From Baekduia alba (GTDB lineage: Bacteria; Actinomycetota; Thermoleophilia; Solirubrobacterales; Solirubrobacteraceae): a stretch of DNA of 64,000 nucleotides. This document shows positions 45,552-55,465 of the stretch, piece after piece. Under the pieces are notes generated by a model. That model did no database searches. It was not told the origin of the DNA and saw nothing but the letters and a program-made list of their open reading frames with translations. Location of the stretch: contig NZ_CP114013.1 in NCBI RefSeq assembly GCF_028416635.1, positions 1,240,001 to 1,304,000 on the forward strand, in the 5' to 3' direction. Position 1 is the first letter of the stretch, and each line of letters starts with the position of its first letter. The translations under genes and the position numbers were made by a program.

Positions 45552-47411
<1,860 letters not shown>

Positions 47412-47413
47412 GC

Positions 47414-47454
47414 GGCAGGGGAGGGTAGGAGATCGGGCTCCCACCCTCCCTGCC
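47414..47454 (-). terminator. Long hairpin between FAD oxidase gene and typA
   Basis: GGCAGGGGAGGGTAGGAG and CTCCCACCCTCCCTGCC pair over about 17 bp with one bulge and one G-T pair, around a 6-nt loop. It lies 7 nt after the FAD oxidase stop and ends 2 nt before the typA ATG. It most likely ends the upstream message; because it almost touches the typA start it could also act on typA translation. Confidence 0.6.
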
Positions 47455-47461
47455 GGGTCAG

Positions 47462-48880
47462 CTAGGCCGGCGCGATGTTCTGGTTGCGGTGGAACACGTT
47501 GTCGGGGTCGTACTTGGCCTTGACGGCCGCCAGGCGCGCGTATGTCTCGTCGCCGTACGCGGCGCGGACGCGGTCCTGGCCCTCGTCGCCGAGGAAGTTG
47601 ATGTAGGCCCCGCCGGTCGTGTGCTCCTCGAGCGAGGCGTACACGTCGCGGCCCCAGGCCAGGCACTCCTCGTCCTGCGTCGGGTCCTCCCAGCGCGACA
47701 TGAAGTTCACGACGTAGGGCGCCGAGCGATGCGGGAACGCGGACGCGTCGGCCGGGACGCGTGCCGCGGCGCCGCCCATCGTGTGGATGTGCAGCTCGCA
47801 GGCGGGCGCCGGGCGGCCGGCGTGACCCTCGGCGAGGCGGTCGATCACCGCGTCGCTGAGCTCGGGCAGGTACCCGGCCTTCATGTGGTTGCGGGCGCCC
47901 TTCTCGAACAGCGGGTCCAGCAGCGACTGCAGCGCGGTGTACGGGATCGGGCCGAGCAGGTCGACGCCGGGCCCGAGCGCGCGAATCGGCGCGAGCGCGG
48001 CCTCGCCGTCCTCCAGCGGGCCGGACCAGCACGCGGCGACGGCGACGCCGGGGTGGCCGTGCATCTCCTCGGGCAGGAACGGCGCGGGCGGCGCGGTGGT
48101 CATGTTGACGAGCAGCGTCAGCTCCTCGGGCATGCCGGCGTCCACCATCTCCCGGACGCGGACGAGGATCTCGCGCAGCTGCGTCGCGGGGAAGAACGCC
48201 GCGCCGCCGTAGACGACCGGGCCGACGGACGCGAGCTGGAAGTCCAGCGACGTGACGATCCCGAAGTTGCCGCCGCCGCCCTTGAGCGCCCACAGCAGCT
48301 CGGCCTCCTCGTCGGAGCCCATGCCGGCGCGGACGACCTGGCCGTCGGCGGTGACCACGTCGGCGCCGATCAGGCGGTCGCACGCCAGGCCGTGCGCGCG
48401 CACGAGGTGGCCGATCCCGCCGCCGAGCGTGAAGCCGGCGACGCCGGTCGTCGACACCAGCCCGCCGGTGGTCGCGAGGCCGAAGGCCTGCGTCTCGTGG
48501 TCGAGCTCGTTCCACTGGAGCCCCGCCTGGGCGGTGGCGCGGCGGCCGCGCGGGTCGACGCGGACGCCCTTCATCGGGCCGAGGTCGATGACGATCCCGC
48601 CGTCGGAGGAGGAGAACCCCGGCAGGCTGTGGCCGCCGCCGCGGACGGCGATCTCGAGGCCCTCGCTGCGGGCGAACTGGACGGCGCGGATCACGTCGGC
48701 GACCCCGGCGCACCGCACGACGATCGCGGGCCGGTCGTCGTCGAACATGCCGTTCCAGACCGTGCGGGCCTCGTCGTAGCCGGCGTCGCCGGGCGTGAAG
48801 CAGGCGCCGCGCAGCCCCTCGCGGAGCTCCTGGACGGTGCCGGCGTCGAGCGTGGTGGAAGCGGGGTGGAGAGAGGTCAT
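47462..48880 (-). CDS. FAD-binding oxidase of the berberine-bridge-enzyme/PCMH type
   Basis: 472 residues. The PCMH FAD domain contains VRGGGHSLPGFSSSDGG, whose His is the covalent FAD attachment site in this family, and GVAGFTLGGGIGHLVRAHGL. The Cys that forms a second FAD bond in bicovalent members is replaced (TTGGLVSTTGVAG), so single attachment is expected. The BBE C-terminal motif is YINFLGDEG...YARLAAVKAKYDPDNVFHRNQNI (in parts). Relatives oxidise sugars, aromatic alcohols or secondary metabolites; substrate unknown. No signal peptide. A SARP regulator lies directly upstream on the same strand. Confidence 0.87.
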   Translation of the reverse strand: MTSLHPASTTLDAGTVQELREGLRGACFTPGDAGYDEARTVWNGMFDDDRPAIVVRCAGVADVIRAVQFARSEGLEIAVRGGGHSLPGFSSSDGGIVIDLGPMKGVRVDPRGRRATAQAGLQWNELDHETQAFGLATTGGLVSTTGVAGFTLGGGIGHLVRAHGLACDRLIGADVVTADGQVVRAGMGSDEEAELLWALKGGGGNFGIVTSLDFQLASVGPVVYGGAAFFPATQLREILVRVREMVDAGMPEELTLLVNMTTAPPAPFLPEEMHGHPGVAVAACWSGPLEDGEAALAPIRALGPGVDLLGPIPYTALQSLLDPLFEKGARNHMKAGYLPELSDAVIDRLAEGHAGRPAPACELHIHTMGGAAARVPADASAFPHRSAPYVVNFMSRWEDPTQDEECLAWGRDVYASLEEHTTGGAYINFLGDEGQDRVRAAYGDETYARLAAVKAKYDPDNVFHRNQNIAPA

Positions 48881-48904
48881 GGCGGCGATGGTGCTCCCGC
48901 GCGT

Positions 48905-48933
48905 CTTTGCGCCGGCTTAGCGCCGGCGCAAAG
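48905..48933 (-). terminator. Hairpin overlapping the stop codon of the SARP regulator gene
   Basis: CTTTGCGCCGGC and GCCGGCGCAAAG form a perfect 12-bp stem with a 5-nt loop. On the minus strand the first arm encodes the last residues (LRRR) and the TAA lies in the loop. No T tract follows. It may end the message or slow ribosomes at the stop. Confidence 0.55.
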
Positions 48934-51900
48934 CGGCGGCATCGGCGTCGAGCAGCGCCAGGCCGCGCGTGTCGCCGAGCAGCGCGAACGTCTCGCGCGA
49001 GCGGCGGCGGACCTCGTCGCGCTCGGCGCGCTCGCCGAGCGCGTGCAGCGTCCCGATCAGCCCCACGTTGCACCACGCCGCCCAGCGCGCGAGGCCCTGA
49101 CCGGCCCAGAGCCCGGCGGCCAGCGCGTACAGCTCACGAGCGCGGGCGACGTCGCCCGCCCGCTCCTCGACGATCGCCCAGTTCTGGTGCGTGCCGGCCA
49201 TCGCGGGCAGGTCGTCGGTGGCCTCGAAGCGCTCCAGCGCGGCGGCGCAGACGTCGCGCGCGGCGTCCGGCCGGCCCGCGGCGCTGTGCACGAGCCCGAG
49301 GCCGAGGGAGACGACGACCGCGTCGCGGCCCTCGCCGAGCTCCTGGCGCAGCGCGAGCGCCGCCTCCAGCCGCGCGGCCGCGGTGTCGAGGTCGCCGGCG
49401 GTGCGCGCGAGGTGGCCGAGGTGGGCGAGCGTCAGCGCCTCGCCGCTGCGGTCGCCGGCCGAGCGGAAGCGCCCGAGCGCCTCGTCCAGCGCGACGCGCG
49501 CGGTCGCCAGGGCCGCCGGCTCGGTCGAGCCGGCGCGCGTCGCCCAGGCGAGGTTGTTGAGTGCCAGGCCGAGCGCCTGCTCGCGGTCCAGCCGCCGGAA
49601 CGGGAAGAGCGTGGCCTCCCAGACCATGCGGGCCGCGCCGTCGGGGCCTTCCGGGAGCGCGAGCATCCCGAACGTCACGGCGTCCAGGAAGCGCTCGCCG
49701 CCGGACGGCAGGGCGCGGAGGCGGTCGCACGCGGCGTCGAGCGCGGTCAGCGCCGCGGCGACGTCGGAGCGCTGCCAGGCCGCCATCGCGGCCGCGTGCG
49801 CGGCGTTGGCGGCGACGCGCGGGCTGTCGTGGCGCTCGGCGGTCGCGATCGCCTCCTCGCACAGCTGCGCGGAACGCTCCGAAGCGCTCACGTAGGCCTC
49901 GTAGAGGGCGTGCTGGATGTGCGCCTCGGCGGTCGCGAGCGGGTCGCCGAGGTCGTCGTAGATCCCGAGCGTCTCCTCCAACCGCCGCAGGTAGGCATAG
50001 GGGTCGCCCCGGCGCAGCGCCAACCCCGCGGCGGCCAGGAGCGCCTCGACGCGCAGCGGCGTCCGCTCCGGGGCCGCGCGCAGGACCGCGTCCAGCCACG
50101 CCGTGCCCTCCAGGAACCAGGAGCGGTCCAGCCAGAAGCGCCACAGCTGCGTCGCGAGCTCCAGCGCGGCCTGCGGGTCGTGCTTCAAGGCATAGGTCAA
50201 CGCGGCGCGCAGGTTGTCGTGCTCGTCCTCCAGCGCGTGCAGCGAGTCGTGCTCGCGCGCCAGGCCCAGGCACCAGTCCAGGTGGCGGCGGGCGACCGCG
50301 TCGCCCTCGCCGGACGCGTCGAGCTGCTCGTCGGCGAACTGCCGGATCGTGTCCATGCAGCGGAAGCGGCCGTCCTCGGCGACGACGAGCGACTTGTCGA
50401 CCAGGCGCGCCACGAGGTCGGCGACGCGCCGCGGCGGGACCGCGCCGTCGGCGACGACGGCCTCGGCGGCGTCGAGCGTGAAGCCGGACGAGAAGACCGC
50501 CAGCCGGCGGAACATCATGCGCTCGGAGTCGTCGAGCAGGTCGTGGCTCCAGGCGATCGTCGCGCGCAGCGTCTGCTGGCGGGTGCGCGCGGTGCGCGGG
50601 CCGGAGCCGAGGACGTCGAGCGCGTCGTCGAGGCGCTCGGCGATCTGCTGGAGCGTCAGCGCGCCGGAGCGCGCCGCGGCGAGCTCCACGGCCAGCGGCA
50701 TCCGGTCCAGGCGGAAGCAGATGTCGGCGATCAGCGCGTCGTCGTCGGCCGCCGTCCACGTCGCGGCGGCCTGCGGCGCGACCGCGGCGGCGCGGTCGCG
50801 GAACAGCTGCGGCGCCTCGGCCAGCGACGGCACGCGCCAGGCGACCTCGGGCGCGCTGCGCAGCGGCTCGCGGCTGGTGGCGAGGAAGCGGACCTCCGGC
50901 GCGGTGGCCAGCAGCGCCTCGGTCAGCTGCGCGCACGCGTCGAGGACGTGCTCGCAGGTGTCGAGGACGACCAGCACGCCGGAGGACCGCGCGAGGTGGG
51001 CGATCAGCGCGTCGACCGCCGGGCGGTTGGCCGGGATCGGGACGCCGAGCGCCGTCGCGACCGACTGGGCGACGAGCGCGGGGTCGCGCAGCACGCCGAG
51101 GTCGACGAGCCACGCGCCGCCGGGCAGGTCGTCGGCGCGGGCCTGCGCGGCCTGGAGCGCCAGGCGCGTCTTGCCGGCGCCGCCCGGGCCGGTCAGCGTC
51201 ACCAGGCGCGCGCGGTCCAGGAGGCGGTGCAGCTCCTCGAGCTCGCGCTCGCGCCCGATGAAGCTCGTGTGCTGGACCGGGAGCGCGGCGCGGCGGCGCG
51301 GCGCCGGCGTGTCGCGCTCGCCCAGCAGCTCGCGGTACAGCGCGCGCGTCTCGGGGTCCGGGTCGGCCTCGTTGTGCTTGCGCAGGGCGGTGCGCAGCCG
51401 CTCGAACTCGGCGAGCGCGTCCTGCCGGCGGCCGGCGCCGGCGAGCGCGCGCATGAGCGCGCGGCGGACGGGCTCGTGGCGGGGCGCGTCGACCGCGGCG
51501 CGGCTCAGGCCGGCGATCGCCGCGCCGGGGTCCCCGCGCGTGGCGTGGCGCTCGGCAACGCGCACGACGAGGTCGAGGTGCAGCTCGCGCAGCGCGGCGC
51601 GCCGGCCCTCGGTCCACTCCTCGAAGCGGTCCTCGGGCAGCAGCTCGCCGGGATAGAGCGCCAGCGCCTCGTCGAGCCCGTCGGGGCGCGCGGCGGCGGC
51701 CTCGAAGGCGTCGACGTCGACGTGCGCGTCCGGCGTCAGGGCCAGCACGTCGTCGGCCAGCGCGAGCGCGCTGGGGTCGCCCAGCGCGCGCCGCGCCGCG
51801 TGCAGCGCCTGGTGGAGGTTGTTGGCGGCGGCGCTCGCGTCGCGGTCGGGCCACAGCAGCTCGCAGACGATGTCGCGGTGGACGCGCCGCCCGGGCGCCA

Positions 51901-52024
51901 GCGCCGCGACCTTGACGAGCGAGCGGGCCTTGCGCAGGCGCCACGCGCGGTCGTCGACGTCGACTCCGTCGATCACGACGGAGAAGCCGCCCAGCAGGGT
52001 GATGCTCAGCGTGCCGGTGTCCAC
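48917..52024 (-). CDS. SARP/AfsR-type regulator (BTAD, NB-ARC ATPase, TPR)
   Basis: 1,035 residues. The N-terminus is a SARP winged-helix domain (~5-95: LLGGFSVVIDGVDV, LLWPDRDASAAANNLHQAL) followed by a bacterial transcriptional activator domain (~100-245). An NB-ARC-type STAND ATPase starts at ~255 (FIGRERELEELHRLL), with Walker A GPGGAGKTRLAL (~280) and Walker B VLVVLDTCEH. TPR-like repeats fill ~600-1030. Such proteins activate pathways for secondary metabolism or stress after sensing through the STAND switch. The adjacent FAD oxidase is a possible target; no biosynthetic cluster is in view. GTG start at 52024, 21 nt after the channel-like gene. Confidence 0.88.
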   Translation of the reverse strand: MDTGTLSITLLGGFSVVIDGVDVDDRAWRLRKARSLVKVAALAPGRRVHRDIVCELLWPDRDASAAANNLHQALHAARRALGDPSALALADDVLALTPDAHVDVDAFEAAAARPDGLDEALALYPGELLPEDRFEEWTEGRRAALRELHLDLVVRVAERHATRGDPGAAIAGLSRAAVDAPRHEPVRRALMRALAGAGRRQDALAEFERLRTALRKHNEADPDPETRALYRELLGERDTPAPRRRAALPVQHTSFIGRERELEELHRLLDRARLVTLTGPGGAGKTRLALQAAQARADDLPGGAWLVDLGVLRDPALVAQSVATALGVPIPANRPAVDALIAHLARSSGVLVVLDTCEHVLDACAQLTEALLATAPEVRFLATSREPLRSAPEVAWRVPSLAEAPQLFRDRAAAVAPQAAATWTAADDDALIADICFRLDRMPLAVELAAARSGALTLQQIAERLDDALDVLGSGPRTARTRQQTLRATIAWSHDLLDDSERMMFRRLAVFSSGFTLDAAEAVVADGAVPPRRVADLVARLVDKSLVVAEDGRFRCMDTIRQFADEQLDASGEGDAVARRHLDWCLGLAREHDSLHALEDEHDNLRAALTYALKHDPQAALELATQLWRFWLDRSWFLEGTAWLDAVLRAAPERTPLRVEALLAAAGLALRRGDPYAYLRRLEETLGIYDDLGDPLATAEAHIQHALYEAYVSASERSAQLCEEAIATAERHDSPRVAANAAHAAAMAAWQRSDVAAALTALDAACDRLRALPSGGERFLDAVTFGMLALPEGPDGAARMVWEATLFPFRRLDREQALGLALNNLAWATRAGSTEPAALATARVALDEALGRFRSAGDRSGEALTLAHLGHLARTAGDLDTAAARLEAALALRQELGEGRDAVVVSLGLGLVHSAAGRPDAARDVCAAALERFEATDDLPAMAGTHQNWAIVEERAGDVARARELYALAAGLWAGQGLARWAAWCNVGLIGTLHALGERAERDEVRRRSRETFALLGDTRGLALLDADAAALRRR

Positions 52025-52045
52025 GGGGTTCGCCCCGCGGCGAGC

Positions 52046-52420
52046 CTACTCCGGCGCGTGCTGCTCGCGGTAGCGATGGTGGAAGAACGAGGCGAACGCG
52101 CCGGCGACCGAGGTGACGACGACCAGCGCGTAGACCTCGAGCGCGACGTCCAGGACCTTGCCGCCGGTCGTCAGCGGGTTCGGGAACTGCGAGGACACCG
52201 TGAGCATCTGGGTCGTCGTCCAGAACAGCGCGTTGCCGAACGTCGTGATCTCGCCGTGATGGCGCTCCAGGAGCCAGCCGGCGAGCGCCGCGAGCAGGTC
52301 CAGGACGATCGTGAGCAGCACGACGCCGGTGATGCGGCCGCGCAGCTCGGCGTGCGCCGCGGTCTCGGCCCGCAGGGTCATCCGGACCCCGCGCAGCACG
52401 CGCATCACGGGATGGTGCAT
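52046..52420 (-). CDS. Two-helix channel-like membrane protein with atypical pore loop
   Basis: 124 residues with a helix at ~31-50 (TGVVLLTIVLDLLAALAGWL) and another at ~92-113 (VYALVVVTSVAGAFASFF). Between them a pore-loop-like segment reads FWTTTQMLTVSSQFPNPLTT. It aligns by eye with the K+ channel pattern W-x-x-x-T-x-x-TVGYGD-x-x-P-x-T, with TVSSQF in place of TVGYGD. It therefore looks like an Ion_trans_2 relative without the K+ filter. Ion selectivity or even channel activity is unknown. It precedes the SARP gene on the same strand and may be co-transcribed. Confidence 0.68.
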   Translation of the reverse strand: MHHPVMRVLRGVRMTLRAETAAHAELRGRITGVVLLTIVLDLLAALAGWLLERHHGEITTFGNALFWTTTQMLTVSSQFPNPLTTGGKVLDVALEVYALVVVTSVAGAFASFFHHRYREQHAPE

Positions 52421-52470
52421 GGCGGCGAGTCTGGTCGGCGCGCCGGACGAGCCCGCGCCGCCGCTGTCGG

Positions 52471-52476
52471 TACAAT
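52471..52476 (+). promoter_or_regulatory. -10 box of the Rieske-sufB-sufD operon
   Basis: TACAAT lies 30 nt before the TTG start at 52507. The region 17 bp upstream is G+C-rich with no good -35, so an activator or a relaxed promoter is possible. Confidence 0.5.
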
Positions 52477-52506
52477 CCCTCCTGCGAAAGTCGGATTTGA
52501 ACTTCG

Positions 52507-52824
52507 TTGCCTGAGATCATCGACATCTGCCCCGTCACCGAGCTCCCGCCGGGCGCCATGCGCGTCGTGGAATGGGAGGACCTCGAGATCGCCGTCGTCA
52601 ACTGCGCCGGCACGCTCTTCGCGATCGAGGACCGCTGCTCGCACGACGACGGTCCGTTGGCCGAGGGCGAGCTGCACGAGGCCGAGTGCACGATCGAGTG
52701 CCCGCGCCACGGCTCGCTGTTCGACCTGCGCACCGGTGCCCCGAAGACCCTTCCTGCCTACGAGCCCATCGAGACCTTCCCGGTGCGGATCGACGGCGAC
52801 CTGATCAAGCTGGAGGTCGAGTAG
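52507..52824 (+). CDS. Rieske-type [2Fe-2S] ferredoxin of the suf operon
   Basis: 105 residues. A Rieske domain whose two cluster-binding motifs are C-x-H (RCSHDDGPL, ~44) and C-x2-H (ECPRHGSLFDL, ~65). It resembles the small non-heme oxygenase ferredoxin component often found inside actinobacterial suf operons, where it may feed electrons to cluster assembly or be an early client. TTG at 52507 is used; the conserved start PEIIDICPVTELPPG follows. It lies 3 nt before sufB, so co-expression is certain if the promoter at 52471 is right. Confidence 0.88.
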   Translation: MPEIIDICPVTELPPGAMRVVEWEDLEIAVVNCAGTLFAIEDRCSHDDGPLAEGELHEAECTIECPRHGSLFDLRTGAPKTLPAYEPIETFPVRIDGDLIKLEVE

Positions 52825-52827
52825 CCC

Positions 52828-54294
52828 ATGGCTGCCACGCCCACGCCCATTGAGACCACCGAGGCCGGCAAGGTCCTCACCCCCGAAGAGGCCGCGCTGC
52901 GGAACCTGGGCTCCGACTACACGGAGCGCTACGGGTTCCACGAGGCCGACAACTACCTCTACAAGGCGCCCAAGGGGATCAACCGCGAGGTCGTCGAGAC
53001 CATCTCGCGGATGAAGGACGAGCCCGAGTGGATGCTCGAGTTCCGTCTCAAGGCGCTGCAGTACTTCCTCGACCGCCCGCAGCCGACGTGGGGCTCGCCC
53101 ATGCTCGCCGAGGTCGACTACGACGACATCCACTACTTCGTCCGCTCGACGGAGCGGCCCAGCCGCTCCTGGGACGACGTGCCCGACGACGTCAAGCGCA
53201 CGTTCGACCGCCTCGGCATCCCGGAGGCCGAGCGCCAGTTCCTCTCCGGCGTCGGCGCGCAGTACGAGTCCGAGGTCGTCTACCACCAGGTGCGCGAGGA
53301 CCTCGAGCAGCAGGGCGTCATCTTCATGGACATGGACTCGGGGCTCCGTGAGCACGAGGACCTGATCCGCGAGTACTTCGCCACGATCATCCCGCCGAAC
53401 GACAACAAGCTGGCGGCCTTGAACAGCGCCGTGTGGTCGGGCGGCTCGTTCGTCTACGTCCCGCCGGGCGTGCACGTCGAGATGCCGCTGCAGGCCTACT
53501 TCCGGATCAACACGGAGAACATGGGCCAGTTCGAGCGCACGCTGATCATCGCCGACGAGGGCTCCTACGTGCACTACGTCGAGGGCTGCACGGCACCGAC
53601 GTGGTCCAGCGACTCGCTCCACTCCGCGGTCGTCGAGCTCATCGCCAAGCCGGGCGCGCGCATCCGCTACACGACGGTCCAGAACTGGTCCAACAACGTG
53701 TACAACCTGGTCACCAAGCGCGCGATCGCCGAGACCGACGCGACCGTCGAGTGGGTCGACTGCAACCTCGGCTCCAAGCTGACGATGAAGTACCCGGCCG
53801 TCTACCTGATGGGCGAGCGCGCCCACGGCGAGGTGCTGTCGATCGCCTTCGCGGGCGAGGGCCAGCACCAGGACGCGGGCGCGAAGATCGTGCACGCGGC
53901 GCCGAACACGACGTCCAACATCTTCGCCAAGTCGATCTCCAAGGACGGTGGGCGCTCCTCGTACCGCGGCCTGCTCGAGGTCGCCAAGGGCGCGCACGGC
54001 TCGAAGTCCAAGGTCGTCTGCGACGCGCTGCTGCTCGACGAGCACTCGCGCTCGGACACCTACCCGACGATCCGCATCGGCGAGGACGACGTCGACGTCG
54101 GGCACGAGGCCACCGTCTCCAAGGTCGGCGACGAGCAGCTCTTCTACCTCATGTCGCACGGCCTGACCGAGGAGGAGGCGGGCAAGCTCATCGTCAACGG
54201 CTTCATCGAGCCGATCGTCAAGGAGCTGCCGATGGAGTACGCGGTCGAGATGAACCGCCTGATCGAGTTGCAGATGGAGGGCTCCATTGGCTAG
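52828..54294 (+). CDS. sufB: Fe-S cluster scaffold protein SufB
   Basis: 488 residues, full length. SufB is the scaffold of the SufBC2D complex. Typical blocks are [53 protein letters not shown] (in part), [11 protein letters not shown] with the conserved Cys, and the C-terminal [19 protein letters not shown] that contacts SufC. It is separated from the sufC-sufS-sufU group by about 9.6 kb. Its stop overlaps the sufD start by 8 nt. Confidence 0.95.
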
Positions 54295-55465
54295 CGCGGC
54301 TATCGCGGCGAGCGTGCCGCAGGTCTCGGTCGAGCTGCCCCAGCACAAGGGCGTCGCCGGCTGGGAGTTCACCCCCATCGACAAGCTGGACCTCGCGAAG
54401 TTCCCGCCGGCGGCCGCCGCCGGCGGCGAGGTCAGCGGCCTGTTCTCGCCGGAGGGCGCGATCGTCGCGTCCGAGGGCGACGCCGCCTCAGGCGTCATCG
54501 TCGCGCCGCTGCGCGTCGCGCTCGAGCGCCACGCCGAGGTCGTCGGCCGCCACTTCGGCACGGTCGTCCGCCCGGGCTACTTCGCCAACGCCAACGCCGA
54601 CTCCTGGACCGACGGGACGCTCGTCTACGTCCCGCGCAACGTCAAGGTCGAGGCGCCGATCCTGATCACGACGATCCAGGACAAGCCCGGCACCGCGCTG
54701 CACCACCGCACGCTGATCGTGCTGGAGGAGGGCGCCGAGGCCGAGGTCTGGGACCAGGTGTCGTCCGCGCACGACGAGGAGGCCGTGGTCAACGGCGTCG
54801 TCGAGCTCGTGGTCGGCGACAACGGGTCGCTCAAGTACATCGGCGCGCAGTCGCTGAACGAGAAGACGTGGGTCTTCGGCGCGCAGCGCTCCGTCGTCGC
54901 CCGCGACGCGACGCTGGACTGGACGACGCTCGCCTTCGGCGGCGGCAACGGCAAGGTCTTCCTGGAGTCCACGCTGGACGGCAAGGGCTCGACCGCCAAG
55001 GTCACCGGCGCCTACGCCACGCGCGGCCGCCAGCACGTCGACTACGACACGCTGCAGGAGCACGCGGCGGCCGACACGGTCAGCGACCTGGCCTTCCGCG
55101 GCCTGATCTCCGGCCGGTCGTCGACCGTCTGGCGCGGCATGATCAAGGTCGACGAGGGCGCCCAGCGCACCGACGCCTTCCAGGAGGCGCGCAACCTGCT
55201 GCTCGGCAAGAAGGCCCACGCCGACGCGATCCCGGGCCTCGAGATCCTCGCCGACGACGTCCGCTGCACGCACGCCGCGGCCATCGCCCAGATCGACCCC
55301 GAGCAGATCTTCTACCTCCGCTCGCGCGGCCTGTCGAAGCCGACAGCCGAGCGCCTGGTCGTCGAAGGCTTCCTCGGCGCGATCGTCGAGCGCTACGACG
55401 AGGGCCCGATCCGCGACGCGATCGCCGGCGCCCTCGAGGGGCGGCTGGCGGAGGTTCTGGGTTAG
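54287..55465 (+). CDS. sufD: Fe-S cluster assembly protein SufD
   Basis: 392 residues. It pairs with SufB through the right-handed beta-helix core (~100-320: [19 protein letters not shown], in part, and [18 protein letters not shown]) and carries the conserved His near [21 protein letters not shown]. It helps iron entry and complex assembly. The start is TTG at 54287 inside the end of sufB, with GGAGG (54277-54281) a few nt upstream, so it is translationally coupled. A perfect hairpin after the stop (55496-55520) probably ends the operon. Confidence 0.94.

What the first reader, a model, noticed from the sequence alone, without database searches (positions are those of the whole stretch)
52046..52420. 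K+-channel-like pore loop without a GYG filter
FWTTTQMLTVSSQFPNPLTT matches the two-helix channel pore pattern position by position except that TVGYGD is TVSSQF. Conservation of the pore helix with loss of the K+ filter suggests a different ion, a non-selective pore, or a sensor. It is next to a STAND-type SARP regulator, which might respond to it.
Basis: partly seen in the sequence, partly recalled or inferred. Interest (0 to 1): 0.55.

Follow-up and report, generated by a model that had tools for sequence, protein, structure and literature searches.

The report
Channel pore with glycine-free filter
The window carries a small ion-channel-like protein whose pore resembles potassium channels but whose ion filter has lost its hallmark glycines; the altered filter is kept in its relatives across a class of bacteria, so it is probably a working pore that is not selective for potassium.

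Summary
The minus-strand ORF 52046-52420 (124 aa) is a two-helix P-loop protein homologous to KcsA (family profile against PDB, E 1.3e-8, ungapped over the filter), with TVSSQF where KcsA has TVGYGD. The replacement is not random: 58 distinct two-helix sequences (the window's included) from five family-level groups of the class, ranked by a profile blind to the filter, all carry T-x-S-S and none carries G[YFL]G. With filter columns left out they form one clade (SH-aLRT 98). As a control, 28 of 32 other channel pores read from the class keep G[YFL]G. Other conserved features are a pore-helix Gln, two acidic residues in helix 2, and a His before helix 1 that one alignment places on KcsA's pH sensor H25. 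Best reading: a tetrameric, non-K+-selective cation pore, perhaps proton-gated; conduction is untested, and the structure model was too poor to help. NaK, NaKTs and NirBac are characterised non-selective precedents, so this is a new variant of a known kind. The suggested SARP link is not supported. A phospholipase-D-family gene is a recurrent neighbour in relatives.

The parts
52046..52420 (-). Two-helix P-loop channel-like protein, 124 aa
   Evidence: ORF; orthologues; KcsA homology
52352..52354 (-). His23, just before helix 1; His in 55 of 55 aligned members; set on KcsA H25 by the single-sequence alignment
   Evidence: KcsA H25 as pH sensor: PMC5669632, passages
52265..52333 (-). Helix 1 (M1), residues about 30-52, ending in the conserved Glu52
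   Evidence: hydropathy, conservation
52202..52243 (-). Pore helix, about residues 60-73, with Gln71 conserved
   Evidence: alignment to KcsA, conservation; limits are approximate
52184..52201 (-). Filter TVSSQF (residues 74-79) in place of TVGYGD
52082..52159 (-). Helix 2 (M2), residues about 88-113, with acidic Asp91 and Glu95 and conserved Ala106, Gly107, Phe112

Best explanation
A tetrameric P-loop cation channel reduced to the bare two-helix pore. Shown by sequence: homology to the KcsA pore; loss of both filter glycines; a strictly kept T-x-S-S filter in one clade. Inferred: without glycines at the positions of KcsA G77 and G79 the backbone cannot take the usual four-site K+ filter shape (recalled structural knowledge), so the pore is lined at its inner end by Thr74/Val75 and higher up by Ser, Ser and a polar third residue, making a wider, hydrated path that passes monovalent cations with little selectivity, as in NaK, NaKTs and NirBac. 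Also inferred: protonation of the conserved His23 at the cytoplasmic end of helix 1 helps to open an inner gate, as H25 does in KcsA. Conduction, ion, gating and oligomer are untested.
For: KcsA homology, ungapped across the filter. T-x-S-S in 58 of 58 distinct two-helix sequences and G[YFL]G in 0 of 58, ranked with a profile whose filter columns were masked; a masked search of 399 genomes of the class brought up no two-helix relative with a glycine filter. One clade without filter columns, SH-aLRT 98. Gln in the pore helix in 57 of 58 (the other is an alignment shift), acidic residue at helix-2 position 91 in 57 of 58 and at 95 in 55 of 58, His at 23 in 55 of 55. The genome has a separate TVGYGD two-helix pore (L155), so K+ selectivity is served elsewhere. 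Characterised non-selective pores with altered filters: NaKTs (PMC5052707, parts 1-2 of 7 read), NirBac (PMC4607889, parts 1-2 of 4), NaK (passages in PMC8689586).
Against: No functional data and no usable structure model. NaK and NaKTs keep both glycines, so the analogy is not exact. The His-H25 match rests on a single-sequence alignment with a two-residue gap right after it, and the profile alignment does not reach it. The gene is dispensable: missing from 3 of 7 congeners searched, one of them complete in one contig, and only a remnant was found in G014 and G103. The Arg116/Glu119 motif near KcsA's second pH-sensing patch is kept in 34 and 33 of 58 and is not reached by the alignment in 21 and 23.
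Confidence: 0.55

Rival explanations
1. A selective pore for another ion (such as Na+, NH4+ or a divalent cation), with the conserved polar side chains acting as the filter.
For: Strict conservation of Ser-Ser and of the acidic pair in helix 2 is more than a merely open pore would seem to need.
Against: The third position varies (Q, S, A or N) and no acidic residue lies in the filter itself, unlike known Na+ and Ca2+ channels (recalled).
Confidence: 0.17
2. A non-conducting sensor or a subunit that mixes with canonical two-helix subunits and tunes them.
For: Some channel families have silent subunits (recalled); the window's genome has a canonical two-helix partner candidate, L155.
Against: In genome G249 (95% complete) the family member is the only Ion_trans_2 match at E <= 0.001, so a canonical partner is not always present; this is a single case. 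A silent subunit would not need so strict a filter.
Confidence: 0.17
3. Still a K+-selective pore that builds K+ sites from a different backbone.
For: Threonine and valine that line the inner K+ sites in KcsA are kept: Thr in 58 of 58, Val or Ile after it in 52 of 58.
Against: Neither glycine is kept in any of the 52 with the full-length filter; in PMC8689586 a smaller change (NaK, TVGDG) leaves two sites and no selectivity (passages).
Confidence: 0.06
4. A degenerate gene or an ORF without function.
For: Patchy distribution and two remnants.
Against: Orthologues down to about 40% identity with the filter as one of the best-kept stretches; purifying selection and codon bias.
Confidence: 0.03

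Closest known systems
KcsA (two-helix pH-gated K+ channel)
   Same: Two-helix pore, ungapped alignment over the pore loop; His before helix 1 at or near the place of H25
   Different: TVSSQF for TVGYGD; about 124 aa
NaKTs of Tsukamurella paurometabola (PMC5052707, parts 1-2 of 7 read)
   Same: Actinobacterial, two-helix, filter far from the K+ signature; non-selective when tested
   Different: Filter LPMGNGPLSP keeps both glycines and has prolines that make a Ca2+ site; its authors found no other channel with that sequence, whereas T-x-S-S is kept in a large family
NirBac channels (PMC4607889, parts 1-2 of 4 read)
   Same: K+-channel relatives whose filter lost the signature; assemble as tetramers and pass monovalent cations non-selectively
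   Different: Carry a Kir cytoplasmic domain; the filter differs even between close relatives
NaK (passages in PMC8689586; listing of PMC9822992)
   Same: Two-helix, non-selective
   Different: TVGDGN keeps both glycines
Actinobacterial six-helix Ion_trans proteins with TV[GSA]S[ED], QGDP or ASNL-type filters
   Same: Nearest sequence relatives; two of the three filter types group with this family in the filter-free tree (SH-aLRT 90); most also lack GYG (45 of 50 lower-scoring rows, one of the 45 being a two-helix-like fragment, L078)
   Different: Have a voltage-sensor-like domain (Pfam Ion_trans over cut-off in 2 of 3 tested) and a filter one residue shorter in the alignment

Membership tests
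K+-selective channels (TxGYG) | Filter signature T-x-G-[YFL]-G | tested here: not met
   TVSSQ; 0 of 58 family sequences carry G[YFL]G
K+-selective channels (TxGYG) | Selectivity for K+ | not testable with these tools
   needs flux or electrophysiology
P-loop two-helix pore superfamily (Pfam Ion_trans_2) | Sequence homology to solved members over the whole pore | tested here: met
   family profile against PDB: KcsA E 1.3e-8, KCNQ5 E 2.8e-7
P-loop two-helix pore superfamily (Pfam Ion_trans_2) | Pfam gathering score 22.5 bits | tested here: inconclusive
   window protein 16.2 bits; family member in G249 22.8 bits
P-loop two-helix pore superfamily (Pfam Ion_trans_2) | M1-pore helix-filter-M2 fold in a tetramer | tested here: inconclusive
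   AlphaFold monomer shows three helices (4-52, 59-77, 84-121) at mean pLDDT 59.9, pTM 0.28; Foldseek none at E <= 0.001; tetramer not modelled
NaK / NaKTs type | Two-helix pore with non-K+ filter that keeps GxG | tested here: not met
   no GxG in the window filter
NirBac | C-terminal Kir domain | tested here: not met
   the protein ends some 11 residues after helix 2

The most novel reading that the evidence does not exclude
A separate class of P-loop pores whose filter has no glycine and is lined by serine side chains, fixed once in Thermoleophilia and kept across the class, gated by protons through a universal histidine, and in some lineages made together with a phospholipase-D-family protein, so that it would act in membrane or lipid stress rather than in K+ balance.
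Probability: 0.25. Interest if true: 0.72.

Novelty: new variant of a known kind. Interest (0 to 1): 0.5.

Why it matters
K+ filters are among the most conserved motifs in membrane proteins, and the non-selective bacterial pores with altered filters that I found in print are few. A family of dozens of bare two-helix pores with one fixed glycine-free filter is a simple system for asking how little of the filter a P-loop pore needs and what it passes, and the members are about the size of KcsA.

Tried and rejected
SARP partnership: rejected as a family feature. Spurious ORF: rejected. Random filter: rejected. Viral origin: a scan of viral contigs with the family alignment found no relative; tblastn of an orthologue (P0003) in phage records gave one hit at E 6e-3, not followed. 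Plasmids: one hit, a Deinococcus six-helix-type ion transporter whose filter region reads TSLGSEYWP.

The second AlphaFold job was not used.

Cautions. The 58 were cut off at 68 bits after I had seen the scores; the next row, a six-helix type, is at 65.7, so the split rests also on architecture and on the tree. One fragment below the line, L078 (LTIPSS), may belong and was not counted. Three of the 58 (L189, L020, L074) have a damaged or unaligned N-terminus. Six of the 58 have a one-residue-shorter TGSSV or TASSV filter, where the glycine, if counted, sits at an ambiguous position. 'Two-helix' is read from the alignment; some open frames run further upstream. Outside the class only 27 loci of the hits were read; no hit there exceeded 73.8 bits. 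The tree used 80 columns for 139 rows, with many unresolved forks. The control of 32 pores is 32 of the 61 matches (two of them fetched); 28 carry G[YFL]G, one GMG, three lack the second glycine and none lacks the first.

Literature: searches, in an open-access library only, brought up no paper on this filter in what was listed; one search listed 10 of 262 papers and one search listed 10 of 1,720.

Full report
What is there. The ORF 52046-52420 on the minus strand encodes 124 aa with a basic N-terminus, two hydrophobic segments and a pore loop between them. A single-sequence search of PDB chains puts KcsA first at E 0.00099; a profile of 16 family members puts KcsA at E 1.3e-8 and KCNQ5 at 2.8e-7, with no gap across the filter. 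The KcsA filter TVGYGD is TVSSQF here. Pfam Ion_trans_2 is below its cut-off for this protein but above it for a family member in G249. Two of 16 members also match Pfam Lig_chan weakly.

Is the filter conserved? Family search: 25 of 101 genomes of the family-level group match at E <= 0.001, counting more distant channels. With the family profile, 47 of 232 genomes of the order, 36 of 249 of the class and 70 of 396 of the phylum match at E <= 1e-6; many of these are six-helix relatives. In 40 sequences under 90% identical, Ser-Ser, the Thr two before them, the Gln and the Pro are invariant. To avoid choosing by the filter I masked 12 columns and searched 399 genomes of the class again: 64 match at E <= 1e-5. 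All two-helix matches were read. Together with those fetched earlier, 58 distinct sequences score 68 bits or more: TVSSQ 35, TVSSS 13, TVSSA 2, TVSSN 1, TISSQ 1, and the shorter TGSSV 5 and TASSV 1. None has G[YFL]G. Of the 50 rows below, 5 have it.

One origin. A tree without the filter columns puts all 58 on one side of a branch (SH-aLRT 98), next to six-helix proteins whose filters are also unusual (SH-aLRT 90); it has few columns and many open forks. The members fall in five family-level groups of the class. In contrast, 28 of 32 other pores read from the class carry G[YFL]G. The window's own genome has three further Ion_trans_2 pores, reading TVGYGD, TTGFGD and STGLSD.

The class is Thermoleophilia by inference: ortholog L004, titled Solirubrobacterales, is the same sequence as the hit in G195, which is in the window's family-level group.

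Other conserved features. His23 is His in 55 of 55 aligned sequences; the acidic position 91 is D or E in 57 of 58, position 95 in 55 of 58; Ala106 58 of 58, Gly107 57 of 58, Phe112 58 of 58. In the single-sequence alignment His23 falls on KcsA H25, which is that channel's strongest pH sensor (PMC5669632, passages); a two-residue gap follows, so the equivalence is tentative. By the ungapped pore alignment, Asp91 and Glu95 stand at KcsA positions 92 and 96, which I take from recalled numbering to lie close to the pore helix; their role is conjecture.

Mechanism. NaK, NaKTs and NirBac show that two-helix pores with altered filters can be open and non-selective. NaKTs has LPMGNGPLSP and needs Ca2+ (PMC5052707, parts 1-2 of 7). 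NirBac channels form tetramers without the signature, pass monovalent cations and are activated by anionic lipid (PMC4607889, parts 1-2 of 4). NaK, with TVGDG, forms two of the four sites (PMC8689586, passages). On that ground I expect a non-selective cation pore. That both glycines are needed for the canonical filter shape is recalled, not taken from a call.

Neighbours. In the window the channel's stop lies 21 bp before the SARP start. G045 has the same order, G030 has SARP, FAD oxidase, channel, TypA, and the 6.5 kb contig of G071 has TypA, channel, Rieske with no SARP. None of 37 loci outside the genus gave a SARP, FAD-oxidase, TypA, Rieske or Suf match at E 1e-20. A phospholipase-D-family gene (Pfam PLDc and PLDc_2 over cut-off; NCBIfam cardiolipin synthase far below cut-off) lies near the channel in 6 of 40 loci of relatives, in G135 as well, and beside channel remnants in G014 and G103. 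In G134 and G143 it ends 12 and 10 bp before the channel's ATG. In 232 genomes of the order it occurs in 20 of 32 with the channel and 38 of 200 without (Fisher p 1.2e-6, not corrected for kinship). The window's genome has one, far from the channel. Strand arrangement varies, so this is a lead, not a demonstrated partnership.

Against. No conduction data; a poor model; absence from 3 of 7 congeners; remnants.

Noticed in passing
L122:4623-6161, L129, L131, L120, L126, L121; L224; remnants in L222 and L223: A phospholipase-D-family gene lies near the channel in several genera, with gaps of 12 and 10 bp in G134 and G143; co-occurrence 20 of 32 against 38 of 200 genomes of the order, uncorrected for kinship.
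   Followed up: partly
L087-L113, L021-L025, L027, L075, L079, L082, L183-L187: Six-helix Ion_trans-type proteins of Actinomycetota with filters TV[GSA]S[ED] (17 rows), QGDP-type (14) and ASNL-type or other (14, one of them the fragment L078) instead of GYG.
   Followed up: partly
L031:1378-2445 (reverse strand frame): TrkA_N/TrkA_C-linked pore whose filter region reads TTGSIPNP (Pfam).
   Followed up: no
L157; L204; L207; L220: Other pores with partly altered filters: STGLSD in the window's own genome, TVGFQE, TVGFME and TVGMGS in class relatives.
   Followed up: no
45552-55465: Around the channel: TypA, FAD-binding/BBE oxidase, SARP-type regulator (BTAD plus NTPase), and, divergent, a Rieske protein with SufB/SufD-like ORFs; gene order differs between congeners. 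The names TypA, SufB and SufD are from recall.
   Followed up: partly
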